In this document: one piece after another, positions 18,061 to 41,395 of the stretch
Layout of the letters: each line of letters starts with the position of its first letter
Numbering within the stretch: the first letter of the stretch is position 1
NCBI GenBank assembly: GCA_963377175.1
Contig: CAUJNA010003749.1
Span: 755,383 to 819,382 of the forward strand
DNA length: 64,000 nt
Direction: 5' to 3'
Source of the DNA: Effrenium voratum
Taxonomy: Eukaryota > Sar > Dinophyceae > Suessiales > Symbiodiniaceae
The notes under the pieces: model-generated
The model's database searches: none
The model's input: the letters and a program-made list of their open reading frames with translations, nothing else
What the model was told of the DNA's origin: nothing
Position numbers and translations under genes: made by a program

Positions 18061-18142
18061 CTATTGCACATTCATGCTCTGTCCCTGGACAAAGCTGCAA
18101 GCTCACCCTTTGCTCCTCCATGTTGCTGCACTTTCAAACTAG

Positions 18143-18684: not shown

Positions 18685-19033
18685 TGTTAAAACCCTCTAG
18701 GCCCCGTGCCGAAATTGGGTAGCTGTTCTGAGGTCCTTGTTGGTGTTGCTTCCCAAGTTCCATTGATCGCCATCTGGCTCAAGACACAATTGAGGTTCAA
18801 GATCTGATGTGTGACTGCATACATACGTGATCGGCATTGAGAGCGAAAACTCTTTGCTTGCGCTGCATTTGTCAGGACCACTGTTGTAACTATCATTCCT
18901 TCTCCCTTACAACGTTTACACGGGTTCGGCTATAACGGCATCGTCCGTATACACCTTTCTACGTGGTTGGTATTACAGCTTGAGGGTTCGGTGCATAGCG
19001 TCCCACGGGACGTCACCTTGCCGTCTCTTGACA
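18685..19033 (+). repeat. 5' LTR of element 2 (349 bp)
   Basis: Starts TGTTAAAACC and ends GTCTCTTGACA. It differs from the 3' LTR by scattered substitutions, one single-base indel in the spliced-leader-like segment (here GCCATCTGGCTCAAG, 18769-18783) and the absence of a 73-bp internal duplication. Confidence 0.9.
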
Positions 19034-19050
19034 GGTTATCAGCCGTAACT
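19034..19050 (+). other. Candidate primer binding site of element 2
   Basis: GGTTATCAGCCG starts directly after the 5' LTR. It resembles, with an extra T, the TGGTATCAG start of the initiator-Met tRNA site used by many Copia elements. The match is short. Confidence 0.4.
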
Positions 19051-22100: not shown

Positions 22101-22775
22101 CAGAAGGGGAAGTGCGATAAGGGAAGCGCTTGCAAGTATAGGCATGAGCTCATCAAGAACAGTTCAGCTCCAGCAACGTCAAATGACAAGGCGCAAGCCA
22201 AGTCGAAGGCTGCCGCCAAAGCCGCAGCGCCAGCCATTGCAAGGAGGGCCATCGCAATGCCCGCGATAGTCCTGAAGCAATCGGCTCCTGCAGGGAAGGT
22301 AAGCTTCAAGAAGGACGTTGACCAGATCGAGCCGGATGAAGCCGAGACTGTCTACCACGAGCACGATGACGACGCGATGAGCGAATCATCGAGATGGTCT
22401 GGCGAGTCCGAGATCCCCGAGAAAATGGTGTGGTTCAAGGAAGTGCTCGACGTCGACGAGGATGGGGAGATCACCTACCTCGAAGACGAGAGAAGGCAAT
22501 GGGAACGAAAAGGGGAATGGTACGGTTATGAGGACAATGAGAATGAGCCTTATCAGTACGTGTACGTCGACGAGAAGAAGTTCAAAAGCAGTGATCATCG
22601 TGAATTATCAGCCTATCAGGTCCAACGATCATTGATACGTGCGAAGATACTGAGAGAAGTGGTGGATGATATATACAAGAAGCACTACTTCCCGGTGACC
22701 AAGGAAAGCAGCATAATGTTCGAGTATGATCGGAACAAGGACGAGATCAAGGAATCGGCTGTCGACTGGAAGTAG
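19132..22775 (+). CDS. gag: Element 2 gag-like protein with coiled coil and two CCCH fingers (frame-broken)
   Basis: Four frame blocks on the plus strand: 19132-19632, about 19632-20750, about 20750-21168, and 21111-22775. The N-terminus is Ser/Pro-rich, then a ~350-residue Glu/Gln/Lys coiled coil, a Gly/Asp/Glu-rich acidic run (20.85-20.95 kb), and a globular gag region (MDKWLEQALGLNPDLDLL to about residue 200 of the last frame). Two CCCH fingers follow in Gly/Lys-rich surroundings (CWYHFKSAKGC...CTFSH and CFAFQKGKC...CKYRH). One shift lies at a run of nine G (~20741-20750). The last block stops at TAG 22773-22775, in frame with pol. Confidence 0.75.
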
Positions 22776-22787
22776 CAGCATGGTATG
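22773..22787 (+). promoter_or_regulatory. In-frame UAG between gag and pol (possible read-through site)
   Basis: The gag frame ends TGG AAG TAG CAG CAT GGT ATG; pol continues in the same frame directly after. A single amber codon between gag and pol is the arrangement of read-through retroviruses and some plant viruses; UAG followed by CAG is a moderately leaky type of context. It may also be a simple nonsense mutation. Confidence 0.4.
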
Positions 22788-25700
22788 CCGAAGAACGTTT
22801 TCGCCATGTCAACGTGCATCAGCAAACGGGTGAAATGGTTGATGGACACCGGATGTGGTCATGACCTCATCGGAAGAGCCAAGGCGAAGAGCCTGGGTGT
22901 CGACATCGTGAAAGATGACGATGAGATCGTGTTCCAGACCGCGAATGGTTCCACTTCCACATCTGATGTGGCCAAGATAGTCGTGGACGAGTTGGACGAG
23001 ACTGTCGAGCCGCATGTGTTGGATGAGACACCCACGGTATTGTCAGTGGGGAGGAGATGCATGAAGATGGGTTATGCATTTCACTGGATGCCTGGTAAAC
23101 TACCTTTCATGGTTACGCCAAAGCAGGGATTCGTGCACTTTCAGGTCAAGGACGACATCCCGTACCTAGTGAGTGATGGTAAGCTTCGGAGTAACAGGCA
23201 TCGCCCTACGATAGACGACCTCAAGGAGCACTTTTCGGAAGTATTGGCGATGGTAACGAACGACGAGGCAGATCAGGGAGGTGACAACGAAAACGACGTC
23301 ACACCCGCCGCTGTCGGTGAGTCCGCAGAGGCCGAGGGCGAACACCACGACGGGGCATTCGACTTCGGGCCACCCGGAGGAGCCGGTCCGGTACGTCCGC
23401 CTCCAGTGGCTGAGGAAATACCTGTAGATGTTGGGTCAGTCCCGCATCGACATGGTGATGCCGAAGCTCACGAGGAAGAGGCTGACGAAGATGATCCAGA
23501 TGCCGGAATCGAAGTAGACGTTTACGAAGGATCATCAATAAAGAGGAAAGTGGGAGTCCTCAAGAAGGACGCCAACTCCATAGCTCATTTGCTTACACAC
23601 AGATACCGAAATCCCTTCTGCGAATCATGCGTCAAGGCAAGGATGAGACACTTCAGATCACGAACGGGAGCATTCAAAAGAGAAGTGAAGACGTTCGGTG
23701 ACCTGGTGACGTTCGACTTTGTGACGGCATCAGGAGATCATGAGGTGGAAGGCAGGTATGCGCTCATCATCCGGGACATATATACCGGAATTATCATGGC
23801 TTATCCCACCGCGAGAAGAGACACTGACTCAGTCGTCAGGGCTATCAAGCACTTCTGCGGGAGGAGGAAGATCAAGCAGGTATATTCGGATGATGGCCCG
23901 GAACTGATCAATGCGTGCGTGGAGCTGAAGCTGAACCACGACCTATCGCTGCCTGGACGACCGCAGAATAACTCCCTTGCTGAAAGAACAAATCAATTCA
24001 TCATTGACCAGACTTCGGCTTGTCTTGTACATGCCGGTCTACCCACGGGTTATTGGGTGCAGGCCATCACCACTCTGTGCCACCTCATGAACATCGAAGA
24101 GGTGAATGGATCGAGTGCATGGATGAGACTGCATGGTGAGGAGTTCAAGGGCGAGAAGATACCTTTTGGTGCGCTAGTGGACTTCAAGCCGAGTGAAGCA
24201 CGAGGGGGGAAGAGGGAGAAGTTCGAGCCGAGAGGGGAAACTGGTATATTTGCTGGATATGTGTTGAGCACCGGTATGCGTTGGGCAAACAAGTATCGTG
24301 CTTGGGCACTTACTGCATTTGCGGGTGCAGAGCTGAACATCAAGAAGGCAAAGGTTCCACCTCGGTTGAGAATGCCACATCAGACGGAGAGGATGATCCT
24401 GAAATCTCCTCTGACATTTCCAATACAACAGAAGTACAAGGTTGCCAACGAGACTTTGGAAGGAATAGAGATGTCTATCGATGCAATCGGTCTGGATGCA
24501 CGTGACCGCCTGATCGAGGATGAGGACTACGAGCCTGATTTGTTGCAGAGTGACGAGAAGCGACTGCTTGACGATGAAGTCGATCAGATCGCTGGTCTAC
24601 TGCTCGACGATGGCCCGGAAGTAATCGCCGGAGATCGGGGGGATCATGCAGGAGAAGAAGATGCTAGACCGAGCTCCTCGAAAGGGAAAGGAGATGGACA
24701 CTCTAAGGGCGATGAGAAGGTTGCGAAGTCCGACCTTCCACACGTGTCAGTTGGGCTACCCGGGGATGGTATCACGTACGTCAACGACGTTGGCAAGGAG
24801 GTTAAGATCGACAAGGCCGGGAGACCGTATCCTGTCGGGAAGGACGGATTCAGGCTAATGAAGACATCGAGACCTCCAGAGTTCACTCCTGAAGAATGGA
24901 AGATGATGAGTAAATATTACACCAAGGAAGAGAAGGCCGAGGTGAAGGGCGGTGGCAAAAGGAAAGAGGAAGATCCCAAGAGTAAAGAGTCTGATATTTC
25001 CGCGCCGGCAGAGGCACGGACATTACAGATGCCCGGTGGTAAGAGAATTCGAGCGATGCTTCGGAACCGCTGGGGTGGAGTAGAATGGCAGTACAATTGG
25101 GGATTGCGGAAGAACATATCAAAGATCAAGAACCCAATGGATGGGAAGCACTTGGCTGAGCTTGAATGGGTCAGGATTGTTGTTAATCCTGTCGACGGGA
25201 TGGTTGTTCTCATGGATTCCAAGCAGTCCCAAGACGTCTTGAGACGAAACGTTCAGCTTGAGAAAGAATTTGAGTGTCTGGTAGTAATTTATGCCTGGAA
25301 GTTCAAGTCTGAGGAGCGATCAAAGTCGACTCCAAACTGGACGAAGGCGGTTGCATCAGTCATGGAGAGTCATAAAGACGAAGCTGAAACGGCATCGGGG
25401 ACGGATCCATCGGTCGACGAATCGACGGATCTTACTTGGTATGAATGGGAGGAATCTGCTGAGGTAGTTTCTGGAAAAGTGCCACTCGCAATGCCTGCGA
25501 TAGGCGAAGACGGTGAAGCCAAGAAGTACCCATCGATGCCGTGCGTGACTTCTGAGCGAATACAGCACAGAGAGAAAGCTGCGAAAGTTGTACGATTCTT
25601 CGACGCTTTAGTATCCAGGCCGGTAGGCCGGAAAGAGATGTTGACCAACCCTGATGCGTTGGCATCGATGAAGAAAGAATGGTCGGGATTAATCGACCAG

Positions 25701-28004
25701 GGCGTCTTCGATCTTGGCGCGGTGCGTGAATATGACGCTGTAGCCAGAGAAGCAAAAGCGAAGGGGGAAGAAATACACATGGCTCGCGCACATGGCATTT
25801 GCGTTGAAAAGCACTCACAGTTGCCTGTTGGTGATCCTAAGAGGAAGTTCAAGGGTATAGGCGTGTTGCTGGGGAACCAAGTGAAGAACCAAAGCTTTGA
25901 GGCTGCGATGTTTCAAGATTTGGGGAACTCCCCTGCTTCATTTGAAGCCTCGCGTTGGGCGGATTTTCTGGGTTGTCACGATGGCTGGGATGTGCAGATG
26001 GCCGACGCTGTTCAGGCGTATATACAGGCCACCTTGAGAGGCACGCCGTGTTGGATTGAATTGCCACCGGAGGCCGTGCCAAGTGAATGCAAATGGGATA
26101 AGTACAGAAGACCAGTCGTCCCGTTGAGGAAGGCGCTGTACGGACACCCAGATGCGGGAACATTTTGGGAGCAGCACTGCGATGAGTCGGTGCGTGCCGT
26201 TGGTTTTGAGCCCATCGGCGAAGAATGGCCTTCAGTGTACATTCATGAAAAGCTCCAGCTTGTTCTGGTTGTGTGTGTCGACGACTTCAAAATGGCAGGG
26301 CCGCAGAAGAACCTTGCCCAAGGGTGGAGCATGTTGCGTACACGTTTGAAGATTGAGCCCGAGACTGGACTTGACATGTACCTTGGTTGCAATCAAAGCA
26401 AGGGAAACGTCACTCTCGGGAACGGACACCGAGTAACAACGGTGACCTATGACATGGAACAGTTCCTACGTTCCTGTGTCGACCGCTATCTTGAAGTGGC
26501 GGGCGACGTGAAGTTGAATAAGGTTGTCACCCCTGAGTTGCATGAAGAAACAAAGAATCACGTCTCACGGAAGCCTGCCAGAGAGGGGCCGTCAGTCGTG
26601 TGCAATTGGTGTAACAATCTTGTGCCCACCGACGGTTCTGCCACAGTGCCGGACCAACGGGGAGGGACTCCTGAGTTGGCCATGAAGGAGCCCGTGCGTG
26701 GACACCTTGCTCCGCATGCCGCTAGCGTACTGATGAAGTTGCTGTACGGTGCGCGGATTGCTCGCTTCGATTTGTTGCGGCAAGTGAATCGCCTAGCACG
26801 GAACGTGCATAGGTGGACTGACTCCGATGATCGGGGTTTGCATCACTTGATGTGCTGTGTGCATCATACCAAACATTGGCGCATGGTCGGTTGGGTTGGA
26901 GACCCTATGGACGATGTGCACTTGGCCTTGTATGCGGACGCTGACTTTGCGGGATGCATTGACTCGCTGCGTTCCACCTCCGGTGGACACTTGAATATAC
27001 AAGGGCCTAATACCCGGTTTCCGTTGTCTGGCGGCTCTAAAAGACAGGGTTGTGTGAGTCACTCCACTCCCGAGGCCGAGATTGTTGCGGCCGATGTTGC
27101 CATGAGATCGATGGGTATGCCCGCTCTCAAGCTGGTATAGCGGATTCTCAAGAAGTCACCGAACTTTGTGTTCTATGACGATAACAAGGCTATGATCGGT
27201 GTTGTGCGATCGGGGAGAAACCCCACGATGCGCCACCTTGAGAGAAGCCATGGTGTTAGCATTTCGTGGATGCATGGGATGTTCACACGTGATTACATGT
27301 ACTTGGCGTATGAGGTCACCGACAGGATGGCGGCCGATATTTACACCAAGGCGTTCAATGATGGGCGCAAATGGAAACATGCATGTTTGCAGATTGGTCT
27401 ACTTGATCCGAGCTTGCTGTCTGACCCGGATACCCTCAAGGCGCTCACACCCACGTGTGATCCCATTTAGGGGACCATGCAGACCGCTTCGGGGACAGTT
27501 GTCGGAGTTCCAACATTTCCGTACACACACATACCGATCATGCCCCCGGACCTATGGTGGTCTGGATTAACATCTAAAGAGGGATTGCATGAGCATGAAG
27601 GACATGATCCGGTTGTTGTTGCCAAGGGACCCGGATTGATGCGTGTGAAACCTCCACTCGCGGTTATGACACCGTTTGGGAGCAAGTGGCTTCGTTCCAC
27701 TTGGTTTCTGAAGAATGGGTCATGGCTCAAAGTTAAGGATAGAGTTGACCCGGGGCTACAATGTGTGCGAATTGATGGTTGGGTTGAACGCGCAGTTTGG
27801 CAGTTTCATCCCGTACCGGTCGCTGCACCGGCGCGGGAACGGTCTCCACGACCACGACCAATTCACGTCGGGTCCGGGGATGTTGACATACAGTCCGTGC
27901 TGGCCGCATTTGTTGAAGAACTGTCGAACGAGCGCATAGAATTGAAGTGTGTTAACGACCTTGCTTTGGAAACGTTGCTCCGATTGAAATTGCTCATGCG
28001 TTGT
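22785..28004 (+). CDS. pol: Element 2 pol, copy A (protease, integrase, RT, RNase H; two nonsense codons)
   Basis: Protease KWLMDTGCGHDLIG (Asp21); integrase zinc pairs HLLTHRYRNPFCESC; catalytic acids in VTFDFVTA, YSDDGPEL and NSLAERTNQ; RT blocks RKFKGIGVLLGNQV, ADAVQAYIQATLRG, RKALYGHPDAGTFWE and CVDD at 26274-26285; RNase H ALYADADFAG, STPEAEIVAAD and YDDNKAMIGV. In-frame TAG codons at 27138-27140 and 27468-27470 interrupt the frame; copy B has sense codons there. The catalytic box reads CVDD instead of YVDD. The open frame runs into the N gap at 28005. Likely one of two overlapping contigs. Confidence 0.85.
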
Positions 28005-28104
28005 NNNNNNNNNNNNNNNNNNNNNNNNNNNNNNNNNNNNNNNNNNNNNNNNNNNNNNNNNNNNNNNNNNNNNNNNNNNNNNNNNNNNNNNNNNNNNNNN
28101 NNNN
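28005..28104. other. Assembly gap (100 N)
   Basis: Exactly 100 Ns, a conventional unknown-size gap. Sequence after the gap (from 28105) matches sequence from about 23520 onward. Confidence 1.
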
Positions 28105-31100
28105 GTGTACGAAGGATCATCAATAAAGAGGAAAGTGGGAGTCCTCAAGAAGGACGCCAATTCCATAGCTCATTTGCTTACACACAGATACCGAAATCCC
28201 TTCTGCGAATCATGCGTCTAGGCAAAGATGAGACACTTCAGATCACGAACGGGAGCATTCAAAAGAGAAGTGAAGACGTTCGGTGACCTGGTGACGTTCG
28301 ACTTTGTGACGGCATCAGGAGATCATGAAGTGGAAGGCAGGTATGCGCTCATCATCCGGGACATATATACCGGAATTATCATGGCTTATCCCACCGCGAG
28401 AAGAGACACTGCCTCAGTCGTCAGGGCTATCAAGCACTTCTGCGGGAGGAGGAAAATCAAGCAGGTATATTCGGATGATGGCCCGGAACTGATCAATGCG
28501 TGCGTGGAGCTGAAGCTGAACCACGACCTATCGCTGCCTGGACGGCCGCAGAACAATTCCCTTGCTGAAAGAACAAATCAATTCATCATTGACCTGACTT
28601 CGGCTTGTCTAGTACATGCCGGTCTACCCACGTGTTATTGGGTGCAGGCCATCACCACTCTGTGCCATCTCATGAACATCGAAGAGGTGAATGGATCGAG
28701 TGCATGGATGAGGCTGCATGGCGAGGAGTTCAAGGGCGAGAAGATACCTTTTGGTGCGCTAGTGGACTTCAAGCCGAGTGAAGCACGAGGGGGGAAAGAG
28801 GGAGAAGTTCGAGCCGAGAGGGGAAACTGGTATATTTGCTGGATATGTGTTGAGCACCGGTATGCATTGGGCAAACAAGTATCGTGCTTGGGCCCTTACT
28901 GCATTTGCGGGTGCAGAGCTGAACATCAAGAAGGCAAAGGTTCCGCCTCGGTTGAGAATGCCACATCAGACGGAGAGGATGATTCTGAAATCTCCTCTGA
29001 CATTCCCGATACAACAGAAGTACAAGGTTGCCAACGAGACTTTGGAAGGAATAGAGATGTCTGTCGATGCAATCGGTCTGGATGCGCGTGACCGCCTGAT
29101 CGAAGATGAGGACTACGAGCCTGAATTGCTGCAGAGTGACGAGAAGCGACTGCTTGACGATGAGGTTGATCAGATCGCTGGTCTACTGCTCGACGATGGC
29201 CCGGAGGTAATCGCCGGAGATCGGGGGGATCATGCAGGAGAAGAAGATGCTAGACCGAGCTCCTCAAAAGGGAAAGGAGATGGACACTCTAAGGGCGATG
29301 AGAAGGTTGCGAAGTCCGACCTTCCACCCGTGTCAGTTGGGCTACCCGGGGATGGTATCACGTACGTCAACGACGATGGCAAGGAGGTTAAGATCGACAA
29401 GGCCGGGAGACCGTATCCTGTCGGGAAGGACGGATTCAGGCTAATGAAGACATCGAGACCTCCAGAGTTCACTCCTGAAGAATGGAAGATGATGAGTAAA
29501 TATTACACCAGGGAAGAGAAGGCCGAGGTGAAGGGCGGTGGCAAAAGGAAAGAGGAAGATCCCAAGAGTAAAGAGTCTGATATTTCCGCGCCGGCAGAGG
29601 CACGGACATTACAGATGCCCGGTGGTAAGAGAATTCGAGCGATGCTTCGGAACCGCTGGGGTGGAGTAGAATGGCAGTACAATTGGGGATTGCGTAAGAA
29701 CATATCAAAGATCAAGAACCCAATGGATGGGAAGCACTTGGCTGAGCTTGAATGGGTCAGGATTGTTGTTAATCCTGTCGACGGGGTGGTTGTTCTCATG
29801 GATTCCAAACAGTCCCAAGACGTCATGAGACGAAACGTTCAGCTTGAGAAAGAATTTGAGTGTCTGGTAGTAATTTATGCCTGGAAGTTCAAGTCTGAGG
29901 AGCGATCAAAGTCGACTCCAAACTGGACGAAGGCGGTTGCATCAGTCATGGAAAGTCATAAAGACGAAGCTGAGACGGCATCGGGGACGGATCCATCGGT
30001 CGACGAATCGACGGACCTCATCTGGTATGAATGGGAGGAGTCTGCTGAGATAGTTTCTGGAAAAGTGCCACTCGCAATGCCTGCGATAGGCGAGGACGGT
30101 GAAGCCAAGAAGTACCCATCGATGCCGTGCGTGACTTCTGAGCGAATACAGCACAGAGAGAAAGCTGTGAAAGTTGTACGATTCTTCGACGCTTTTGTAT
30201 CCAGGCCGGTAGGCCGGAAAGAGATGTTGACCAACCCTGATGCATTGGCATCAATGAAGAAAGAGTGGTCGGGATTAATCGACCAGGGGGTCTTCGATCT
30301 TGGCGCGGTGCGTGAATATGACGCTGTAGCCAGAGAAGCAAAAGCGAAGGGGGAGGAAATACACATGGCTCGCGCACATGGCATTTGCGTTGTAAAGCAC
30401 TCACAGTTGCCTGTTGGTGATCCTAAGAGGAAGTTCAAGGGTAGAGGCGTGCTGCTGGGGAACCAAGTGAAGAACCAAAGTTTTGAGGCTGCGATGTTTC
30501 AAGATTTGGGGAACTCTCCTGCTTCATTTGAAGCCTCGCGTTGGGCGGATTTTCTGGGTTGTCATGAGGGCTGGGATGTGCAGATGGCCGACGCTGTTCA
30601 GGCGTACATACAGGCCACCTTGAGAGGCACGCCGTGTTGGATTGAATTGCCACCGGAGGCCGTGCCGAGTGAATGCAAATGGGATAAGTACAGAAGACCA
30701 GTCGTCCCGTTGAGGAAGGCGCTGTACGGACACCCAGATGCGGAAACATTTTGGGAGCAGCACTGCGATGAGTCGGTGCGTGCCGTTGGTTTTGAGCCCA
30801 TCGGCGAAGAATGGCCTTCAGTGTACATTCATGAAAAGCTCCAGCTTGTTCTGGTTGTGTATGTCGACGACTTCAAAATGGCAGGGCCGCAGAAGAACCT
30901 TGCCCAAGGGTGGAGCATGTTGCGTACCCGTTTGAAGATTGAGCCCGAGACTGGACTTGACATGTACCTTGGTTGCAATCAAAGCATGGGAAACGTCACT
31001 CTCGGGAACGGACACCGAGTAACAACGGTGACCTATGACATGGAACAGTTCCTACGTTCCTGTGTCGACCGCTATCTTGAAGTGGCGGGCGATGTGAAGT

Positions 31101-32749
31101 TGAATAAGGTTGTCACCCCTGAGTTGCATGAAGAAACAAAGAATCACGTCTCACGGAAGCCTGCCAGAGAGGGGCCGTCAGTCGTGTGCAATTGGTGTAA
31201 CATTCTTGTGCCCACCGACGGTTCTGCCACAGTGCCGGACCAACGGGGAGGGACTCCTGAGTTGGCCATGAAGGAGCCCGTGCGTGGACACCTTGCTCCG
31301 CATGCCGCTAGCGTACTGATGAAGTTGCTGTACGGTGCGCGGATTGCTCGCTTCGATTTGTTGCGGCAAGTGAATCGCCTAGCACGGAACGTGCATAGGT
31401 GGACTGACTCCGATGATCGGGGTTTGCATCACTTGATGTGCTATGTGCATCATACCAAACATTGGCGCATGGTCGGTTGGGTTGGAGATCCTATGGACGA
31501 TGTGCACTTGGCCTTGTATGCGGACGCTGACTTTGCGGGATGCATTGACTCGCTGCGTTCCACCTCCGGTGGACACTTGAATATACAAGGGCCTAATACC
31601 CGGTTTCCGTTGTCTGGCAGCTCTAAAAGACAGGGTTGTGTGAGTCACTCCACTCCCGAGGCCGAGATTGTTGCGGCCGATGTTGCCATGAGATCGATGG
31701 GTATGCCCGCTCTCAAGCTGGTAGAGCGGATTCTCAAGAAGTCACCGAACTTTGTGTTCTATGACGATAACAAGGCTATGATCGGTGTCGTGCGATCGGG
31801 GAGAAACCCCACGATGCGCCACCTTGAGAGAAGCCATGGTGTTAGCATTTCGTGGATGCATGAGATGTTCACACGTGATTACATGTACTTGGCGTATGAG
31901 GTCACCGACAGGATGGCGGCCGATATTTACACCAAGGCGTTCAATGATGGGCGCAAATGGAAACATGCATGTTTGCAGATTGGTCTACTTGACCCGAGCT
32001 TGCTGTCTGACCCGGATACCCTCAAGGCGCTCACACCTACGTGTGATCCCATCAAGGGGACCATGCAGACCGCTTCGGGGACAGTTGACGGAGTTCCAAC
32101 ATTTCCGTACACACACATTCCGATCATGCCCCCGGACCTATGGTGGTCTGGATTAACATCTAAAGAGGGATTGCATGAGCATGAAGGACATGATCCGGTT
32201 GTTGTTGCCAAGGGACCCAGATTGATGCGTGTGAAACCTCCACTCGCGGTTATGACACCGTTTGGGAGCAAGTGGCTTCGTTCCACTTGGTTTCTGAAGA
32301 ATGGGTCATGGCTCAAAGTTGAGGATAGAGTTGACCCGGGGCTACAATGTGTGCGAATTGATGGTTGGGTTGAACGCGCAGTTTGGCAGTTTCATCCCGT
32401 ACCGGTCGCTGCACCGGCGCGGGAACGGTCTCCACGGCCACGACCAATTCACGTCGGGTCCGGGGATGTTGACATGCAGTCCGTGCTGGCCGCATTTGTT
32501 GAAGAACTGTCGAACGAGCGCATAGAGTTGAAGTGTGTTAACGACCTTGCTTTGGAAACGTTGCTCCGATTGAAATTGCTCATGCGTTGCCTGCATATCA
32601 ATCACGAGCAGCTTGTCCCTGGTCGTTGTTTTGTTCCGTATCGCATTGCGGTGAAGCACAAGCCACAGTTAGCGCCGGGTATTGAACTCGCGATGGTCAA
32701 ACAAACCTGGTATGAGAACTCGCACAGTCGTCACTCTTTACAGTGTTGA
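28105..32749 (+). CDS. pol: Element 2 pol, copy B (integrase, RT, RNase H; stop and frameshift in integrase)
   Basis: Near-identical to 23520-28004 (about 1% difference by eye), shifted by 4585-4586 bases. It has TAG at 28219-28221 in the integrase zinc motif (CESCV then stop, where copy A has Lys) and one extra A near 28795-28797, which moves the frame; after that it is open to 32749. RT is intact with YVDD near 30862-30873. Beyond RNase H (DIYTKAF) it encodes ~240 residues rich in Trp and Pro (GSKWLRSTWFL, WVERAVWQFHPVP) with no family recognised, and a Leu-rich helix. The frame shifts again between 32682 and 32749 into the methyltransferase-like segment. Confidence 0.8.
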
Positions 32750-33390
32750 CTTGGCTCGGCCTATCGTGCTGATGGCATGTTCCGAACCACGTAACTGGTT
32801 CACTGCTCTTGCCCGCCATGACGGGCCGCAGGTTGTCACCATAACTCTGGTTGATGACTTACTGAGCGAGTACGGGGGGAGAATCGCCAGACATGTGCTT
32901 ACCAAACCTTCCGATTTGTTGTTCTTCGCCGGGCCTTGCACGGGGGGATCATCATGGGCACGCCTCAACAAGACTCGCGGAATTGACACCGCAGAGAAAA
33001 TCGAGGCCAAACAAAGAGAATTTTGGAGATTGTTTGAACGGTTCGTTGAAATTAAACGGCATGCCATGACAAAACGAGCCGCGATTTTGTTTGAGTTGCC
33101 TGGAAGTTGTGATTATTGGAAAGATGAGAGACTGCATGAGGTTGTGCATGATGGGACTAGTCACGAGTTTGATGGGTGTCGCTATGGCTTGAAACAAAGA
33201 TATGCAAAGAAACCCATGCCAATCAAGAAACCATGGAGAGTTGTCTCATGGAACTTTGAACTTGGTGGCTCGTTGTCTAAGAAATGCAATGGAAACCATG
33301 AGCATGGACCTTGTGCTGGTCGTGAAACCAAAGAAACCCAGTTGTACACGTCTATAATTGTGGGTGTGATCCTTCGCCGTTTTCGTGCTC
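32682..33390 (+). CDS. Element 2 methyltransferase-like (PCTGG) domain
   Basis: First ~230 residues of the frame 32682-36335. Order of motifs: VVTITLVDDLLSEYG strand, DLLFFAGPCTGGSSW (Cys86), AILFELPGSCDYW (Glu138), FDGCRYGL, KKPWRVVSWNF, then C...HEHG. The same order occurs in element 1 (5.94-6.44 kb). Inference: Rossmann-type methyltransferase related to cytosine-C5 enzymes, where Pro-Cys carries the catalytic Cys and the later Glu lies in the ENV-like motif. A classic FxGxG SAM motif is not obvious. The domain sits directly after pol; it may be part of the polyprotein, since the joining frame break is only one base. Confidence 0.45.
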
Positions 33391-33700
33391 GAGCAAGGTG
33401 CCTCAAACCGGCACCGTTGAAACTCGCTCTTGCTTGCATTACGCGAAGGAGATCGCGGAAGCACCAAGCTACTGCGAGCGAAATCTGCACCACCCCAACT
33501 GCACAACCGAGGTGCTGGGTCAGTCCCGAACCTCTGGTGCATACGGGGAGCTGGGTCAGTCCCGAACCCCAAGCTTCAAGGAGGAGCTGGACGAGTTTGT
33601 CACCTCAATCTGAAGCTGGGATCGTATTGGGACAATTCCGTGGCTTCATTTGCAGCTGCTTATTTTGGATTTTCCTGGGTCTGGAGAACATCATCAAGAT
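33391..33700 (+). other. Low-complexity linker with duplicated GGGTCAGTCCC motif
   Basis: Open in the same frame but Arg/Ser/Pro-rich, with two copies (33517-33527, 33553-33563) of a GGGTCAGTCCC micro-hairpin inside a 36-bp tandem repeat. A short hydrophobic stretch (GFICSCLFWIFLG) follows at about 33640-33680. Confidence 0.5.
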
Positions 33701-36335
33701 GACCGCCAATCCGACTGTCGTCAATGCGAATGAGTTCTTCTGCGTGCCTGTCGGGAAATCTAGGCAAGCGGCAGTCTTCTTGGGAAATTTGGTGAAGAAC
33801 GCCATCGAGGAAGGCAAGAGGATACCCAAGAGGATGGAGATGAACAGCGACCTGGGTATGTGCGTGAAGTGGATCGAGGACATCGGCGTCCCCGCTATTT
33901 ATGCATACTCTGCGTACTACTCTGCCAAGGGCCGCGGGATGATGAAAGGTGAAGGGCAGTCTATGAGGGTTGCCTTAGAGTTCATCAGCAAAGTTTTCGG
34001 ACAGCTTTCTGCCGACGAATGTATGCTTGGATGGAGGGAATTCTGCAGCAAGGGAAAGAAGATAGTGTCGGCGCTGAACCAACTTTGCGGTGAGGCAACG
34101 ATGCTAGCGAAGAACCCCGAGTTGCTCGACGTAACCAAGTACTGCATAGAAGGGGCGGATATGTTGAGGTCAATCGCGAACATCTGGGATCTCGCACTAG
34201 GCGTGGCCGAGGACAACGATGAACGGTCGTTCAAAGCTGCATTCCACCAGAACACCCCGGTTGGGGAGGTGTACAAAGAATTCATCAGCGACGAGTCATC
34301 TAGGGCATCGTCATCGAGAAGGTGGAGGAGCTCCGAGGAGTTCCAGACGACTGCAGAGTTTGAGAGGCACGATCGGAGAATTGCAAGGTACAGAGATCGA
34401 AACTGGGGGAAAGTGTTCACGTTGAGCGTGATCAAGGCTCCCAAGATCGACTCCTACGGTCGTGGTTCCAAGGACGACTACCAGAAGAATTGGGACCTTG
34501 GGTTGGTCTACCAGAATGAGCTGCAGGCATCGATGAAGAACCTCGCATATGCACTGAGGAGGGATGAGAATGCCAGCCAGAACAATCTGTTGCGCTGGAT
34601 GATCTGTGGGTCAACCCCCAGTGACATCTCTGATGCGTGCATCGGGGCGGTCAATTCGCTCATGTGCGTATCGTTCATCATGAGGAGATTGCAGCCATTG
34701 CTCGGTGAGAAGGACTCCAAAGATCAGTCGTATACAGCTTATTTCCGTCCAGACAAAAGGGAGCTGAACGATCTCTACCGGGAGATCGAGTACGCCAGGG
34801 ATTTCCTATGGTGCATCGATATGATCTATGAGTCGAAGCTGCCTGCGATGAACATCAACTCCATCAGTTTGGCACCGCACGCGGCTGACAGGGCCGCTGA
34901 GAACCAAGATCGGCGCAAGTGGGTAAGCTGGATGAAGGAGATCGAGAAGAAGGCCGAGAAGGACGTCATGATCGAATTCTTCCAGAATAAATACTGCACG
35001 ATTCATGAAATCGAGAGGGAACTGGAGAAGTACCCCGAGGATTTCGTGGTTGGGGAAGAGCCGACATGGTGGGTGATGGGCTCATCGAAGACGGAGCCGC
35101 CACGGAAGACGGAGCGACAGCAGAAGTCGGCATCAAGCTCCGGACAAAGGAGTCAAACCGCTGGTGGGTCAGTCCCCCAGCCGGGAGCTCCAAGTGGGGG
35201 GTCGCAAGCCAGCGATGCTGTCAAGATCGACAACGAGATCATCGACTCCATTTTCCGAATGAACTCTGGCGGTGACGACGACAGATGGGTGATTATTAAC
35301 CCAACTGCTGGACATGATACCTACACTTCATTCGAAGGGGGTATTACTTTGGGCGGCGCGACTGTCAATGTGAAGTTCAACATAGACAACAATACGGGGT
35401 ACCCGATCATACAAACTGTATTTGGGCCGTGTCTTGCAGAAGGTAAGAACGCAACATACTGGGAGTGTATGCTGAGATGCCTGACCTCTTCGCTATTGCA
35501 CTTCGAGGAGAAGACCAGCGCGGAGAAGATTATTCTTTCATATGTTGGAAAGGGGAACGCGGCATGGCTACAGCTATATGCTTTCTTGTGTGCCCAAACA
35601 GGATGCTTGTTTACTGGACGCCTTCCGGGCGCCAAAGCCATCAACGCGTTGATCCAGGCGGAGATGAACCCGGACAACGCACCTGGACAGTTGAACCGGA
35701 TTATCAAGAGACAGAAGAGGAGCCCCATTGGTGAGGCAACGATTCGCGACATGATGATCCAGAAGAAGAGCTTCTTGGTCCTGGACTGGCCCCTGAGGGC
35801 CGTCAACTCGAAAGGGAGCACGAAGACCTTCCAGATGATGGTCAACGAACAGGGATGGACAAATATCGAAGAGAGATCATACTATGGGTCGAGTGAGCAA
35901 GTCTCCTCACCCAGCGACACGTTGAATATCATCTCCCGATTGCAGAAGCTGGATAAGCTCATCGCTGGACGGCGGAGGCGAGACATGGATGACTCACCAA
36001 TGTCGGTGCACATTTGGATGTCGCTATATGATTGGGTGTGCATGAGAGGATGTGGGTGGCAGGTGACCGCCAATCCCATCATCGACTCCCTGCAAAAGGC
36101 GGTATCTGACCTCGTCAACACGTGCAAGGGCCTGGTCGTGGTGTGCGTGAATCGTGATGTTGCTTTCCATGGAGGGAGAGGGGACTTGGGGACGATCGCC
36201 AACAAGGTTAGCGAGATCTGCAAGGCGGCAGGCGCGCTGGTGACCGAGAACGATCGCCTGTGGCGCGTGGTCCATGCGCTCACAGGAAAGAACTACAAGA
36301 TCCCTGGGAGCTCGAACTGCAACATTTCCTCCTGA
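33697..36335 (+). CDS. Element 2 large accessory protein of unknown function
   Basis: Part of the open frame 32682-36335; an internal Met near 33697 (KMTANPTVVNANEFF) could start a separate protein of ~880 residues. Residues 1-470 are largely alpha-helical (TVVNANEFFCVPVGK; many Leu/Ala/Lys heptads; charged DRRIARYRDRNWGK). A Ser/Gln/Pro-rich linker near 35080-35220 separates this from a second globular part (RWVIINPTAGHDTY; GPCLAEGKNATYWECML; KGLVVVCVNRD). No family recognised. It replaces, in position, the SGNH-like part of element 1. The frame ends at 36335 and coding continues in another frame from about 36260. Confidence 0.5.
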
Positions 36336-39300
36336 AACGACTGCTGATTGAGAAATCCATCGATGCGGTCGCACCAAGCAACGCGTTTGTGTGTGAGCTG
36401 GAGGGGACGTGCATAAACGAGCCCGACCTTCGATTCAACATCCCGAAGAACATGGAAGAGTCGAAGGTGAAGTTTGAATACAAGCCGACCTTCACTGCGC
36501 AGTCAAAGAGGAAACAAGAACAGCAAGATGAAGGGCACGGCGAACAGGATGCGTTTGGGAAAGCCGATGTCGGTGATCAACGTCTTCGATGGTATACGGT
36601 CACGGAGCTCAGCAAGTTTATCTGCGAACTTTGCGCTAAAGAGATGCAGATGAGCAAGTCGAAGGTGCTCGGACCGAACTCGAAGTACAATCCCTCTTCT
36701 TGCGTGAACTGTTGCGCGAACTGGAACGCGGACACGAACGGTATTGCAAGGTCTATCGAAGGGAAGAAGCTGTACACGCGCCTCTTCGCGGAATGCGTGG
36801 TTGCAATCCCTGACCTTCAGAACCTCATGGTGGACGTCAACAACATCCAGGCCATGATCACGATTATACGGGAGCTCGCGTATTCTAAGCTGAAGAAGGA
36901 GCTCTCCCACGTGGGCTTCGTGAGCATGACAGTGGATCAGGCAGCACAGTTCTACAACAACGGTCACGGGAAGCAATTATGTGCATCCCGGGATGTGATC
37001 GTGTGCAAGAATTCCGAGGGAGTCGAGGAGAGAATGTCCATCTTCATGATAGACAAGGATCTCGGCAACGTGGCCTATTCCTCCTGGATCAAGAGCGTGC
37101 TCGACCAAGGGACGATGTATGAACTCCTAGGACAAACCTCAAACGAGGAATCCTTGGGAGACGTCGTCGAGATGGTATTGGGGTTCTTTGAGGTGATGTC
37201 GTACTTTCAGCACGAACTGCCACTGTGGAAGGATGTGTGGAAGATCAAGAGGGAGTTCGAGCAGTCAATCGTACGACACCTCGCCGGGAACGTGACCCAC
37301 ACGACGGGCCAGAACCGAAAGCGGAACAAACCTTCCGCTCAACTCGGGGCGCCCACGAAAGAAGTGCTGGACATCATGAACAAGGCTAAGCCCAGACACC
37401 CGCGATCCCTGATAACCGAGCCTGCTGCCCAAGGGTCCAAGAGAAAGGCAACGGAGGGCGAAGGTGACGGTCTTGGTCAAGCACCAGACCCGAGCCGAAG
37501 CTCTCAGCCCAACGCTGAGAAGGAAGAGAAGAAGCAGCGAGTGATCGACGGGCGGAGAGCGGCACTAGGATTCCTGGAGTCAATGGAGAAGTGCATGGGA
37601 GAAATGGGAATCTGCAAGAAGTGCGCGAACCTGGCCCACGACGGCGACTGCAAAGACATTGAGGAGGCTGCTGGCAACGAGAAAGCGATGAAGATGCTCC
37701 GTAAGCTACTCAGCAGTGATCCCGTGTCATCGGATGAAGATATGGGGGATACGGAGGAACCGCCCTCATCAACGTCCAAAGAAAGAAAGAGAGGAGGACA
37801 AGCAGGGAAAGAAACAATTGAGATGTATAGCTATACCATCAACTTGGTGGAGATGGCTGACACGGCAGAGGGAGGAGAGCTACAATGTGGTGGCGTGGAC
37901 CTCACCTACAACCCGTGCGGGGACAACAGGACGTTCAAGAGGACGCTTGAGATGGGATGCGACACCATCCCGTGCTACATCCCGAAGTACGGCGACGTGA
38001 GTGATGTGCACTTGCCATGGGCGTATGCGTCCATCGTTGACCCCAGATACTTTCCCAAAGGTGCCATCCTTGAGCAGGTGGACGTGATGCAGCTTGGCAA
38101 GAGTGTCATTTTCTGCGTTGCTCCTTTTGACGGCGCTCCACTGTGCAGGATTGGCGATGATCGCTCGGTATTTGCTACGAAAGACCAAGCAAACCAGCTA
38201 TCTCATGACCTATGCCGAGTCCTTCGACACAAGATCGGCAGCTGCCGAGGAAGTGCTTTCAGGTGCGACGAAGGTGGATGGGTCGACATTGACGCAGTCA
38301 TTGACGACCGGAACAACGACATATTCCCGCCAGGCACCTCGAGAGCGAAGCGATACATGGGCATCATGGAGGTGATCAAGTGGCAGGAATCTGGAAGCAA
38401 GAAATCGAGATTTCAGGTCCTGGCAGCAAGGTGTCCAAGCATCATGAACCCGAACGACACCAAGGCGGCCAGGGAGGAAATGACCAAAGCTGGCATGGAT
38501 CGGGACGACATCGACAGGATGTTCAACAGATGCGATGGTTGGTACAGACCTTGGTGCATCCGAGTCACAACTGGTCACAGTGATTTTGGATTCATGAGCT
38601 CATCCGCACTGGCAAATAGGTATTCCGCAAGGATGGGTGATTCTCTCGGAGGAGCATTCCATGTGACGTATGTGGAAAAACTGCCAAGCATCGTACGCTG
38701 TGGGTTAGTCCCCGGCGGAATCGATGGCGGTAACAGGCTAGCACTGCACTTCGGAGCGTTCGCTCCATGGGATGAGATGAACGTGGCAACACAGGTGACG
38801 CTGCGGAACGTAAGGAAGGGGGACCCGATTGCGATCATCTACATTCCCAGTGCAACCCTCGCGCGGTATGGAGCTGGAGTCGCGGCAAATGGGACTTTCA
38901 TGGTCTTTGACGTGGTCCCGTTCTATGAGGTCAAGTCCATTTGGATTGGCAGAAGCAACGGAGGGAAACGCCTGGAGTACGTTGATGTCAAGAGAGCGTA
39001 CTCGATGTGTGTGGAGAACGAGATCTGCCCTGGCTTCGTCAACTCATCCCAAGAGTCGGCTGCGATGTTCCTCCAGAACGTCACAAAGATCAGCGAGAGG
39101 ATGCCCGAGACCGAGACAGGTGCCGATAATCTGCACTACATCAGGGACATGGTTGATCGTGCATGCGAACTCTATCGGAACAACAAGATGGAGGAGTTCA
39201 ACGCGCAGGTCAACGAGGTCAGGGACGAAATCAGCAAAGTCGTCATCCTGCATGATGAGACATGGGAGGGACTGAGATGCCGGATATGTCCATCGTGTGC

Positions 39301-40339
39301 GACCGCGATCCCCACATGCTTCTGCTTATGCCTGGAATGTGAGGCGCAACTGATCTCCACCGGGAGGTACTACATCCACGTCAACTCCGACGATGAGGAG
39401 GACAATCAAAACCCCAACGTATCGGGAGATGCCAAGCGCGCACAGGAAGAAGCTAACCACGGTGCGGCGGCACAGGAGGATGATGACGAAGCGGAGGAAG
39501 TTCCGGGAGAAGAAGACGACATGGACACGCAAGGATATACATCCGGATATGCGTCAGAAGAGGATGACAGCGGTTGGTATTACCGCGACACTGATCTGAC
39601 GTCACGGGATATCATAAATTCCCAGCGGATGGCGATCTGCCTTGACGAGCCGCGTGAGGCTCAGTACATGGCAGGGTTTATCGCACTCCAGATGTCCAAG
39701 ATGGGGGGGATGTTCGAGGGTGGTGAGGAGAGAACGATGAATGCCCAACTCGAGGGGAGACCGGGCTGCCCTTACCACAATGACTTCAAGAGATACCCCA
39801 ACATGACTGAGCACGATCAGGAAGGTATACTTTTGCCATCAACAACACCGAAGATTTCTCAATCGGAGAATGTTCGGACAAGAGCCTTCCGATCGGTTGA
39901 GGAGCGTGACGAATATATTCGTATGATGGTGAACAAATGCGAGGGACTATACACATTTTACAAGCTGTGGATTGCAGCAAGAATCCTCGATGTCACCAAG
40001 GAAGAAATGAAGCTCCTGGTCAAGGACCGAGTGCACCCGGTGGGTGAAATTATTTTCAGATGTTTTGCACTAGCTTTCAACTGTAAGTATATATCATTCG
40101 TGAGGGATGGCCTAAACCTTGGCAAGCATGGCTACGCGGTCAATGTGAGCGCCATCATCTCGGCCGTCGACCCGAACAACTGCGACACACCCCTGCTGGA
40201 TTGGTGCCTTCGGAAAGGGCACTGGTTGCCAGAGGACTACAACAAGAAGTGTGTCCGGGCACGAGAAGCCCAGAAGAACTTGGACGAGGAGTTCCGTCGA
40301 CGCACTCACAGACTGTCCATTGTGGACCGGTATGCGTAG
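36260..40339 (+). CDS. Element 2 accessory protein with Tpt1/KptA-like RNA 2'-phosphotransferase domain
   Basis: 1359 residues, unbroken. Residues 1-370: unrecognised, with Cys pairs (FICELCAKEM, CVNCCANW). 370-540: Lys/Glu-rich linker with CKKCANLAHDGDC. About 645-930: Tpt1-like. LSHDLCRVLRHKIG gives Arg656-His657, GGWVDIDAVI follows as in the family's N-terminal winged helix, then IRVTTGHS (Arg768), HVTYVEKLP (His801), CGLVPGG and NRLALHFG (Arg826). Thus the known Arg-His, Arg, Arg active-site set is kept. Tpt1 removes an RNA 2'-phosphate using NAD+, making ADP-ribose 1'',2''-cyclic phosphate. A Cys-rich segment (CRICPSC...CLCLEC, from Cys1007), an acidic run and a ~200-residue C-terminal domain follow. 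The first in-frame start is GTG; it probably continues the previous frame. Confidence 0.7.
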   Translation: MARGPCAHRKELQDPWELELQHFLLKRLLIEKSIDAVAPSNAFVCELEGTCINEPDLRFNIPKNMEESKVKFEYKPTFTAQSKRKQEQQDEGHGEQDAFGKADVGDQRLRWYTVTELSKFICELCAKEMQMSKSKVLGPNSKYNPSSCVNCCANWNADTNGIARSIEGKKLYTRLFAECVVAIPDLQNLMVDVNNIQAMITIIRELAYSKLKKELSHVGFVSMTVDQAAQFYNNGHGKQLCASRDVIVCKNSEGVEERMSIFMIDKDLGNVAYSSWIKSVLDQGTMYELLGQTSNEESLGDVVEMVLGFFEVMSYFQHELPLWKDVWKIKREFEQSIVRHLAGNVTHTTGQNRKRNKPSAQLGAPTKEVLDIMNKAKPRHPRSLITEPAAQGSKRKATEGEGDGLGQAPDPSRSSQPNAEKEEKKQRVIDGRRAALGFLESMEKCMGEMGICKKCANLAHDGDCKDIEEAAGNEKAMKMLRKLLSSDPVSSDEDMGDTEEPPSSTSKERKRGGQAGKETIEMYSYTINLVEMADTAEGGELQCGGVDLTYNPCGDNRTFKRTLEMGCDTIPCYIPKYGDVSDVHLPWAYASIVDPRYFPKGAILEQVDVMQLGKSVIFCVAPFDGAPLCRIGDDRSVFATKDQANQLSHDLCRVLRHKIGSCRGSAFRCDEGGWVDIDAVIDDRNNDIFPPGTSRAKRYMGIMEVIKWQESGSKKSRFQVLAARCPSIMNPNDTKAAREEMTKAGMDRDDIDRMFNRCDGWYRPWCIRVTTGHSDFGFMSSSALANRYSARMGDSLGGAFHVTYVEKLPSIVRCGLVPGGIDGGNRLALHFGAFAPWDEMNVATQVTLRNVRKGDPIAIIYIPSATLARYGAGVAANGTFMVFDVVPFYEVKSIWIGRSNGGKRLEYVDVKRAYSMCVENEICPGFVNSSQESAAMFLQNVTKISERMPETETGADNLHYIRDMVDRACELYRNNKMEEFNAQVNEVRDEISKVVILHDETWEGLRCRICPSCATAIPTCFCLCLECEAQLISTGRYYIHVNSDDEEDNQNPNVSGDAKRAQEEANHGAAAQEDDDEAEEVPGEEDDMDTQGYTSGYASEEDDSGWYYRDTDLTSRDIINSQRMAICLDEPREAQYMAGFIALQMSKMGGMFEGGEERTMNAQLEGRPGCPYHNDFKRYPNMTEHDQEGILLPSTTPKISQSENVRTRAFRSVEERDEYIRMMVNKCEGLYTFYKLWIAARILDVTKEEMKLLVKDRVHPVGEIIFRCFALAFNCKYISFVRDGLNLGKHGYAVNVSAIISAVDPNNCDTPLLDWCLRKGHWLPEDYNKKCVRAREAQKNLDEEFRRRTHRLSIVDRYA
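38195..38960 (+). other. Tpt1/KptA-like domain core in element 2
   Basis: Spacing between the Arg-His dyad (656/657), Arg768 and Arg826 is longer than in yeast Tpt1 (24, 71, 138) because of an insertion of ~60 residues between the N- and C-terminal lobes (SKKSRFQVLAARCPSIMNP to RCDGWYRPW). The C-terminal lobe keeps the HxT, GL and RxxxH positions. A strand-rich tail with MVFDVVPFYEV follows. Confidence 0.65.
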
Positions 40340-40967
40340 TGAAGATGCTGATTGCGGCACGATGTGGGTTAGTCCCCATCTGTTGCTTGCGTCTCATCAA
40401 CACCATTGCGATGGAACGACTTTACATTATGATATGATTTCATATATCCAAGTTGAATGGATGTGTACATGGTTACATATTCCGATGACTATGACGCTCT
40501 GGATATTCATGGATGGAACTATTACCTTATAGATGATATCTTTTAATTATTTATGCATTGTCCATGGTATCTGGAATGGCTATGATTTGCATTGATTACT
40601 CACCGATGTTTCTTTGCCGGAAATATGCAGACCGATTACAAGCAGGCGCCTCTGGTGGACTTTTGTGGCCAACCCATTTATGGATGACAGCTGCGCGATG
40701 CGCAAATGCGGCAGCTGGATTGTTCGTTGGTGGTCAAATGACGTGACGATTGTGTATTATATACACCTGCATATGGATGTGTGCTTCGATTGGAGGATGA
40801 ATGTTTCACTTTTCGTACAATCGAACCCGGCATGTTTCACAGCGAATGAACGGTGTAGTGATAGCAAGTAAAAGAGTGCACGACACGATTTGTAGTTGAA
40901 GCCGTGGCCAGTGGAACGTTTTGTGGTGTTTGGACCGCATGATGAACAATGCGACCCAAATGGGGGA
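40340..40967. other. Untranslated tail of element 2
   Basis: About 630 bases without a supported gene, AT-rich relative to the coding part. One GGGTTAGTCCC micro-hairpin at 40366-40376. Ends in the polypurine tract. Confidence 0.6.
40958..40967 (+). other. Polypurine tract of element 2
   Basis: AAATGGGGGA directly before the TGTTAAAACC start of the 3' LTR; a G-run of this sort primes plus-strand DNA in LTR elements. Confidence 0.75.
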
Positions 40968-41390
40968 TGTTAAAACCCTCTAGGCCCCGTGCCGAAATTG
41001 GGTAGCTGTTCTGAGGTCATTGTTGGTGTTGCTTCCCAAGTTCCATTGATCGCCATTTTGGCTCAAGACACAATTAAGGTTCAAGATCTGATGTGTGACT
41101 GCATACATACGTGATCGGCATTGAGAGCGAAAACACTTCGCTTGCGCTGCATTTGTCAGGACCACTGTTTTAACTATCATTCCTTCTCCCTTACAACGTT
41201 TACACGGGTTCGGCTATAACGGCATCGTCCGTATACACCTTTCTACGTGGTTGGTATTACAGCTTGAGGGGTCGGTGCATAGCGTCCCACGGGACGTCAC
41301 CTTGCCGTCTCTTTTCTACGTGGTTGGTATTACAGCTTGAGGGTTCGGTGCATAGCGTCCCACGGGACGTCACCTTGCCGTCTCTTGACA
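40968..41390 (+). repeat. 3' LTR of element 2 (423 bp) with 73-bp internal duplication
   Basis: Same ends as the 5' LTR. The extra length is a tandem copy of a 73-bp block (about 41243-41315 and 41316-41388) from TTCTACGTGG to the CCGTCTCT end, plus one extra base near 41058. Confidence 0.9.
41052..41067 (+). other. Embedded dinoflagellate spliced-leader sequence
   Basis: GCCATTTTGGCTCAAG is identical to the last 16 nt of the conserved dinoflagellate spliced leader. The upstream six bases differ from it. The 5' LTR carries a decayed copy (18769-18783). Confidence 0.8.
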
Positions 41391-41395
41391 ATGGT
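41391..41395. repeat. Target site duplication (right), ATGGT
   Basis: Identical to 18680-18684. Confidence 0.9.

What the first reader, a model, noticed from the sequence alone, without database searches (positions are those of the whole stretch)
36260..40339. A giant Copia element encodes a Tpt1/KptA-like RNA 2'-phosphotransferase with the active-site set intact
Seen: LSHDLCRVLRHKIG (Arg656-His657), GGWVDIDAVI, IRVTTGHS (Arg768), a His801 HxT position, CGLVPGG and NRLALHFG (Arg826), in family order, inside a protein between pol and the 3' LTR. Known: Tpt1/KptA removes RNA 2'-phosphates using NAD+ and uses an Arg-His / Arg / Arg set; some family members also ADP-ribosylate nucleic-acid 5' ends. 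Inference: the element may use it to heal RNA or tRNA-fragment ends or to modify nucleic-acid ends. I know of no described LTR retrotransposon with this enzyme.
Basis: partly seen in the sequence, partly recalled or inferred. Interest (0 to 1): 0.92.

Follow-up and report, generated by a model that had tools for sequence, protein, structure and literature searches.

The report
Giant Copia retrotransposon carrying Tpt1 enzyme
A very large jumping gene in what looks like a dinoflagellate alga carries, behind its copying machinery, a recognisable RNA-repair enzyme domain with its catalytic residues conserved, a combination not found in our searches of the literature.

Summary
ORF 36260-40339 contains a Tpt1/KptA domain: Pfam PTS_2-RNA 31.5 bits, cut-off 26; profile-profile score 65.9 against at most 26.0 in 100 column-permuted controls. 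It lies inside one Copia-type LTR element, 18685-41390, with matching LTRs and an exact 5-bp target duplication; removing the element and one duplication restores a 262-codon open frame. Correction: the essential tetrad is R656-H657-R717-R826. The tetrad is intact in 19 of 21 relatives covering all four positions. Of 15 ORF2 relatives, 10 continue into the Tpt1-bearing ORF and 1 begins in the pol tail, so in other copies the domain may sit in a giant Pol-linked polyprotein; these are gene models. The window copy is frame-broken at both joints. Chemistry and role are inferred: most likely NAD+-dependent processing of phosphates on element RNA or primer ends. Giant LTR elements with captured enzymes (AlkB in Gypsy) and KptA in RNA-virus polyproteins are known; Tpt1 in a Copia element was not found in our searches.

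The parts
18680..18684 (.). 5' target-site duplication ATGGT
   Evidence: empty-site test
18685..19033 (+). 5' LTR, 349 nt, TGTTA..TGACA
   Evidence: 97.4% to 3' LTR over 349 alignment columns; alignment
19034..19050 (+). putative primer-binding site, starts GGTTATCAGCCG, no TGG next to the LTR; reads like the complement of a tRNA anticodon loop (inference)
   Evidence: sequence; the anticodon-loop reading and the copia primer site are recalled, not from a call
19132..22775 (+). gag-like ORFs (19132-19632, 19632-20867, 21111-22775); the last has CCCH zinc-finger matches below Pfam cut-offs
22785..27140 (+). pol ORF, first assembled copy: protease, integrase, RVT_2 in Copia order
   Evidence: PF13650 22.6 bits (cut-off 24.3), rve 20 (32.6), RVT_2 30.2 (31.6), all below cut-off; motifs
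28005..28104 (.). 100-N assembly gap; 23520-28003 and 28105-32589 are 98% identical, probably two overlapping contigs (inference)
28778..32749 (+). pol ORF, second assembled copy (RT, RNase H), no N between it and the Tpt1 ORF and 3' LTR
   Evidence: RVT_2 34.9 bits, cut-off 31.6; N runs
32682..36335 (+). ORF2 (PRNWF module, then MTANP region from 33699), no Pfam match at E up to 1; out of frame with pol and with ORF3 in this copy
36260..40339 (+). ORF3 with the Tpt1 domain
38189..38845 (+). Tpt1/KptA domain, Pfam match residues 644-862
   Evidence: profile-profile; model and fold
38225..38230 (+). tetrad R656-H657
38426..38551 (+). family-specific insertion, about residues 723-764, in the RNA-lobe hairpin; less conserved than the lobes
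   Evidence: alignment; conservation 0.69 against 0.86
38660..38668 (+). H801-V-T803, equivalent of HGT
38735..38737 (+). tetrad R826
40958..40967 (+). short putative polypurine tract AAATGGGGGA (inference from position)
40968..41390 (+). 3' LTR, 423 nt, with an internal tandem copy of 74 nt
41052..41067 (+). GCCATTTTGGCTCAAG, match to the 3' part of the dinoflagellate spliced leader, inside the LTR
   Evidence: leader and relic sequences in PMC12014239 (passages)
41391..41395 (.). 3' target-site duplication ATGGT

Best explanation
This is a giant (22.7 kb as assembled, about 18.1 kb if the 4.6-kb pol duplication is an assembly overlap) Copia-type LTR retrotransposon whose coding region continues past RNase H into a very long extension that contains a Tpt1/KptA domain. 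Shown here: the family match, the conserved tetrad, the element boundaries, many relatives in the database. Inferred: the domain is an active NAD+-dependent ADP-ribosyltransferase that works on phosphates of the element's RNA or of its primer, with 2'-phosphate removal after RNA damage or ligation as the canonical reaction, delivered in the virus-like particle or cytoplasm as part of the polyprotein. This particular copy is no longer intact; the activity would belong to intact relatives.
For: PF01885 above gathering score in the window and in 5 of 9 relatives scanned, up to 36.4 bits in P0029. Profile-profile match far above 100 permuted controls, with all four tetrad residues paired to the right columns. 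Tetrad complete in 19 of 21 relatives covering it; random position quadruples average 56%, and 3.4% of 5000 do as well. The two lobes are better conserved (0.86) than the insertion (0.69). The tetrad is essential for 2'-phosphotransfer and for 5'-end ADP-ribosylation in studied enzymes (PMC6333775; PMC6582358; passages seen). One insertion with LTRs, TSD and restored open frame. One 90% cluster alone, P0005, stands for 1765 sequences.
Against: No activity was measured. The match is remote: 22-31% identity to the 42 KptA rows, and single-sequence tests are weak. HGT is HVT. 2 of 21 relatives lack tetrad residues; R717 is K or T in 3 of 60; among 31 more divergent relatives the tetrad positions are conserved above average but are not the most conserved. 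P0028, which covers the domain, had no PF01885 match, and P0022 scored 24.0, under the cut-off. Many relatives are fragments. No Ka/Ks: DNA of other copies was not available. The window copy is frame-broken. No partner enzyme of an RNA-repair pathway was recognised in ORF2 or ORF3 by Pfam; a motif scan found one K-x-N-G site in ORF2, of no shown meaning.
Confidence: 0.45

Rival explanations
1. Same element and domain, but the working reaction is 5'-phospho-ADP-ribosyl capping of RNA or cDNA ends, protecting them from decay, ligation or sensing, not 2'-phosphate removal.
For: Human TRPT1 and Streptomyces KptA modified 5'-phosphorylated but not 3'-phosphorylated ends in the cited tests, and in TRPT1 this needs the same tetrad (PMC6582358, passages). 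PDB entries titled KptA with DNA and NAD+ or 5'-p-ADPR-DNA exist (titles only).
Against: Nothing in the sequence separates the two reactions; both use the same tetrad.
Confidence: 0.25
2. Inert passenger: a captured host Tpt1 gene that has kept its fold motifs by recency but does nothing for the element.
For: Window copy is frame-broken; many relatives are fragments; remote similarity; HVT in place of HGT.
Against: In 31 relatives at about 50-80% identity over the domain, those covering each position keep R656 16/17, H657 16/17, R717 18/20, R826 10/12, against a mean of 0.70 (H801 only 12/16), and the lobes are more conserved than the insertion.
Confidence: 0.17
3. The fold is reused as an ADP-ribosyltransferase on proteins, or as an NAD+ sink or RNA-binding module, against host silencing.
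For: The NAD lobe also resembles other ADP-ribosyltransferases at lower rank; viral members of the superfamily have diverse roles (PMC9503650, passages).
Against: The RNA-binding tetrad is kept; the 19 Foldseek matches with E up to 0.001 are all Tpt1/KptA (the model is not independent of KptA).
Confidence: 0.1
4. The Tpt1 ORF is a host gene or another element that merely lies next to, or is nested in, a Copia element.
For: Assembly has an N gap and a 4.5-kb repeat within the element. Only 1 of 15 ORF2 relatives shows the pol junction.
Against: RT, RNase H, Tpt1 and 3' LTR lie on a stretch without N; exact TSD and restored frame bracket all of it; P0111 joins pol tail to ORF2, and 10 of 15 relatives join ORF2 to ORF3.
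Confidence: 0.03

Closest known systems
Tpt1/KptA/TRPT1 RNA 2'-phosphotransferase family (PF01885)
   Same: Order of motifs, Arg-His-Arg-Arg tetrad, H-x-T, RxxxH block; Pfam score above cut-off
   Different: Embedded in a retrotransposon protein of 1359 aa or more, insertion of about 42 residues in the RNA lobe, HVT not HGT, low identity
Giant Phalaenopsis Ty3/Gypsy elements with a functional AlkB RNA demethylase ORF (PMC9289625, passages seen)
   Same: Giant LTR element (25 kb) with an added RNA-acting enzyme
   Different: Gypsy not Copia, plant, other chemistry; the authors saw no domain gain in plant Copia-type elements
DNMT-bearing LINE and DIRS retrotransposons of Symbiodinium (PMC5890265, passages seen)
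   Same: Dinoflagellate retrotransposons with a captured nucleic-acid enzyme inside or beside Pol
   Different: LINE/DIRS, methyltransferase; the paper says the abundant Symbiodinium Copia elements lack a DNMT
KptA domains in two positive-strand RNA-virus polyproteins, sawfly nucleopolyhedroviruses and Bodo saltans mimivirus (PMC9503650, passages seen)
   Same: KptA carried by a selfish replicator, in the RNA viruses inside a polyprotein
   Different: Not reverse-transcribing elements; no hit for retrotranspos or retroelement in that text
LTR elements with additional ORFs between pol and 3' LTR (PMC7264820, part 1 of 3 read)
   Same: Same place for the extra coding region
   Different: Described there as env-like or of unknown function, in plants
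Pseudoviridae, genus Hemivirus (Copia elements primed by a short tRNA segment; PMC8515867 and PMC5371799, passages seen)
   Same: Copia order of pol; primer site here does not begin with TGG
   Different: Genomes 4 to >9 kb in that profile; no Tpt1 mentioned in the passages; primer here not identified

Membership tests
Tpt1/KptA (PF01885) | Sequence score above the curated family cut-off | tested here: met
   31.5 bits, cut-off 26. The NCBIfam equivalog cut-off, a narrower model, is not reached: 12.7 of 239
Tpt1/KptA (PF01885) | Arg-His-Arg-Arg tetrad | tested here: met
   R656, H657, R717, R826 paired with E. coli R21, H22, R69, R125; same columns in a separate alignment
Tpt1/KptA (PF01885) | HGT motif contacting NAD | tested here: inconclusive
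   His and Thr present, Gly replaced by Val (H801-V-T803)
Tpt1/KptA (PF01885) | Winged-helix RNA lobe plus ART NAD lobe | tested here: inconclusive
Tpt1/KptA (PF01885) | NAD+-dependent 2'-phosphotransferase activity | not testable with these tools
   needs an assay
Copia LTR retrotransposon (Pseudoviridae-like) | Two LTRs and short target-site duplication | tested here: met
Copia LTR retrotransposon (Pseudoviridae-like) | pol order protease-integrase-RT-RNase H with RVT_2 | tested here: met
   RVT_2 34.9 bits, cut-off 31.6; order PF13650, rve, RVT_2 in the first copy, scores 22.6, 20 and 30.2, all under their cut-offs; RNase H only by the recalled YADAD motif
Hemivirus-type half-tRNA priming | PBS complementary to an internal tRNA segment | tested here: inconclusive
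   Region after the LTR starts GGTTATCAG, no TGG; host tRNAs not available, none found in the window

The most novel reading that the evidence does not exclude
A retrotransposon that brings its own primer-healing enzyme: the element primes reverse transcription with a cleaved tRNA half (its primer site lacks the usual TGG and its complement reads like a tRNA anticodon loop), and the polyprotein-borne Tpt1 removes the blocking 2'-phosphate left by anticodon-loop nucleases, so stress-made tRNA halves become primers.
Probability: 0.1. Interest if true: 0.93.

Novelty: new variant of a known kind. Interest (0 to 1): 0.72.

Why it matters
It would add an NAD+-dependent RNA-repair or RNA-end-modifying activity to the enzymes that LTR retrotransposons can carry, in the Copia superfamily, where a survey of plant elements saw no domain gain (PMC9289625, passages). 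It also gives a concrete test of what Tpt1 does outside fungal tRNA splicing, which PMC6333775 and PMC6582358 call unclear (passages).

Tried and rejected
Nested or neighbouring host gene: rejected on the LTR/TSD and empty-site evidence. AlphaFold on the shallow family alignment failed, pLDDT 36.5. A four-sequence HMM of bacterial/archaeal Tpt1 matched P0001 only at 2.7 bits, and no relative above 9.2 bits. PDB profile search with A4 hit Tpt1 chains but is circular, because A4 holds KptA rows. PDB profile search with A1, which contains no KptA rows, found no Tpt1 chain up to E 10, only a dynein row at E 0.015. Relatives of this protein in viral contigs (2 scans), genome contigs and phages: none; the tool says records of the window's own genome may be left out. 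A motif scan for 2H, ligase and kinase signatures in ORF2/ORF3 gave nothing convincing. PHROGs: only an insignificant row, E 0.07. Foldseek rows beyond rank 19 (ADP-ribosylating proteins, E 0.01 and worse) cover mainly the NAD lobe and were not pursued. The search of the window's own assembly did not complete, so copy number, Ka/Ks and long-range linkage stay untested.

Literature: searches aimed at Tpt1/KptA with retrotransposons were made, and for Tpt1 in general; some searches were on related topics. None of the titles and abstract starts listed describes an LTR retrotransposon with Tpt1/KptA. Lists were capped (30 of 68; 20 of 11,696; 8 of 79,421). Papers that hold the terms but were not opened: PMC4504042, PMC4053983, PMC3549820, PMC11817969. 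The library is open-licence PMC only; PMC5776459 on heat-activated Symbiodinium Copia elements was not held.
Full report
What was checked. Pfam assigns residues 644-862 to PTS_2-RNA, the Tpt1/KptA family, at 31.5 bits against a gathering score of 26 (E 2.2e-7). Of nine relatives scanned, six were listed for PF01885: P0029 36.4, P0040 31.8, P0005 31.1, P0032 29.0, P0052 26.6 and, under the cut-off, P0022 24.0. P0028 covers the domain and had no such match; P0111 and P0102 do not reach the domain. Weaker tests: NCBIfam 12.7 bits, no Tpt1 chain in PDB by phmmer or by a profile of close relatives, 1 of 1000 shuffles reaching the Smith-Waterman score against E. coli KptA, 2.7 bits with a four-sequence HMM. 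The strongest test is profile against profile: 59 rows of this family against 137 KptA sequences (136 unique from bacterial and viral loci plus E. coli) gave probability 96.3% and score 65.9; 100 column-permuted versions gave at most 26.0.

Active site. PMC6333775 (passages) gives the essential tetrad of CthTpt1 as Arg18, His19, Arg68 and Arg121. Counting along the sequence printed, Arg68 is the Arg of KKR(Y/F); the Arg of IRA-x-x-GHS is residue 77 and is not in the tetrad. In the profile alignment and in a separate MAFFT alignment of 59 sequences the tetrad columns hold R656, H657, R717 and R826 of the window, the HGT columns H801 and T803, and R849 pairs with E. coli R143, the column of CthTpt1 Arg139, which contacts NAD.

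Conservation. Two protein searches gave 12 and 86 relatives, all from ENA without organism names. Of these 98, 97 align somewhere in residues 636-930. Among those covering each position, R656 is kept in 49 of 52, H657 in 49 of 52, R717 in 57 of 60, R826 in 46 of 48, H801 in 46 of 51. Twenty-one cover all four tetrad positions and 19 keep all four; P0015 and P0018 lack residues at 656/657. Random position quadruples average 0.56, and 3.4% of 5000 reach the observed 0.905. In a divergent subset of 31 (about 50-80% identity) the counts are 16/17, 16/17, 18/20 and 10/12, above the mean of 0.70 but not the most conserved positions, and H801 is 12/16. The lobes (0.86) are more conserved than the insertion at 723-764 (0.69).

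The element. LTRs at 18685-19033 and 40968-41390 begin TGTTA and end TGACA, are 97.4% identical over 349 columns, and are flanked by ATGGT. Joining the flanks with one ATGGT gives a 262-codon open frame across the junction on the minus strand; read from the same start, keeping both copies or shifting by one base gave 103, 101 and 91. Open flanks would join in phase by chance one time in three, so the weight lies on the TSD and the frame together. The insertion, N gap included, thus has two matching ends. Pol has RVT_2 above cut-off in its second copy and protease, integrase core and RVT_2 in Copia order, under cut-off, in its first. The stretch 23520-28003 is repeated at 28105-32589 at 98% around a 100-N gap, most simply two overlapping contigs; without it the element would be about 18.1 kb. 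RT, RNase H, Tpt1 and 3' LTR lie on the gap-free side.

Other copies. A search with ORF2 gave 15 relatives. Ten of 15 join ORF2 to ORF3; P0005 and P0008 do so through the whole Tpt1 domain, P0012 with a large internal skip. One, P0111, runs from pol residues 1117-1307 into ORF2. P0080, from the earlier search, joins gag to part of the Tpt1 domain. These are gene models; predicted introns could have made some joins, and pol to ORF2 rests on one of them. They suggest that in other copies pol, ORF2 and Tpt1 share one frame, and that the window copy is broken at both joints, near 32.7 kb and 36.3 kb.

Host. The window's own assembly could not be searched. The 3' LTR holds an exact 16-nt match to the 3' part of the dinoflagellate spliced leader, the 5' LTR a degraded one; leader and relic are given in PMC12014239 (passages). 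Controls: at up to 2 mismatches 7 of 100 shuffles held a match, and the 21-nt pattern with up to 3 mismatches found none. This supports a dinoflagellate host and suggests that the element RNA was trans-spliced at some time.

How it may work. Studied Tpt1 enzymes use the tetrad both to remove internal 2'-phosphates and to ADP-ribosylate 5'-phosphate ends. For RNA viruses with KptA in polyproteins, PMC9503650 raises processing of RNA termini as a possibility (passages). By analogy I favour RNA-phosphate processing on the element's own RNA or primer. The region after the 5' LTR starts GGTTATCAG and lacks TGG. Its complement ends CTGATAA-CC, like an anticodon loop, and Drosophila copia uses a half-tRNA (passage); the copia primer sequence itself is recalled. 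This is the basis of the boldest reading, which is untested. Against it: CthTpt1 contacts the 3'-phosphate next to the 2'-phosphate, which a cut tRNA end would lack, and human TRPT1 and Streptomyces KptA modified 5' but not 3' phosphates in the tests seen.

Novelty. Our searches found no LTR retrotransposon with Tpt1/KptA (calls and limits under Tried and rejected). The nearest cases are giant orchid Gypsy elements with AlkB, Symbiodinium LINE and DIRS elements with DNMT, and KptA in RNA-virus polyproteins.

Noticed in passing
41052-41067 and 18770-18783: The LTR contains what looks like a relic of the dinoflagellate spliced leader (exact 16 nt in the 3' LTR, degraded in the 5' LTR), which suggests that element RNA is or was trans-spliced and that the leader became part of the LTR.
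   Followed up: partly
19034-19050: Primer site starts GGTTATCAGCCG with no TGG; complement resembles a tRNA anticodon loop (CUGAUAA-CC, recalled rule), as in half-tRNA primed Copia elements.
   Followed up: partly
23520-28003 and 28105-32589: 4.5-kb direct repeat at 98% around a 100-N gap, probably an uncollapsed assembly overlap.
   Followed up: partly
21111-22775: Gag-like ORF carries CCCH zinc-finger matches (Pfam, below cut-offs).
   Followed up: no
32706-33500: PRNWF module directly after the pol tail, no Pfam match; present in the 4 of 15 ORF2 relatives that reach it (P0102, P0107, P0108, P0111).
   Followed up: no
18001-18684 and 41396-42200: The element interrupts a minus-strand open frame, perhaps a host gene; the frame is continuous across the empty site.
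   Followed up: yes
53935-55280: Array of degenerate tandem repeats (self-comparison), not examined.
   Followed up: no
P0029 (protein): A divergent Tpt1 relative whose gene model continues into a different, integrase-like sequence (by eye).
   Followed up: no
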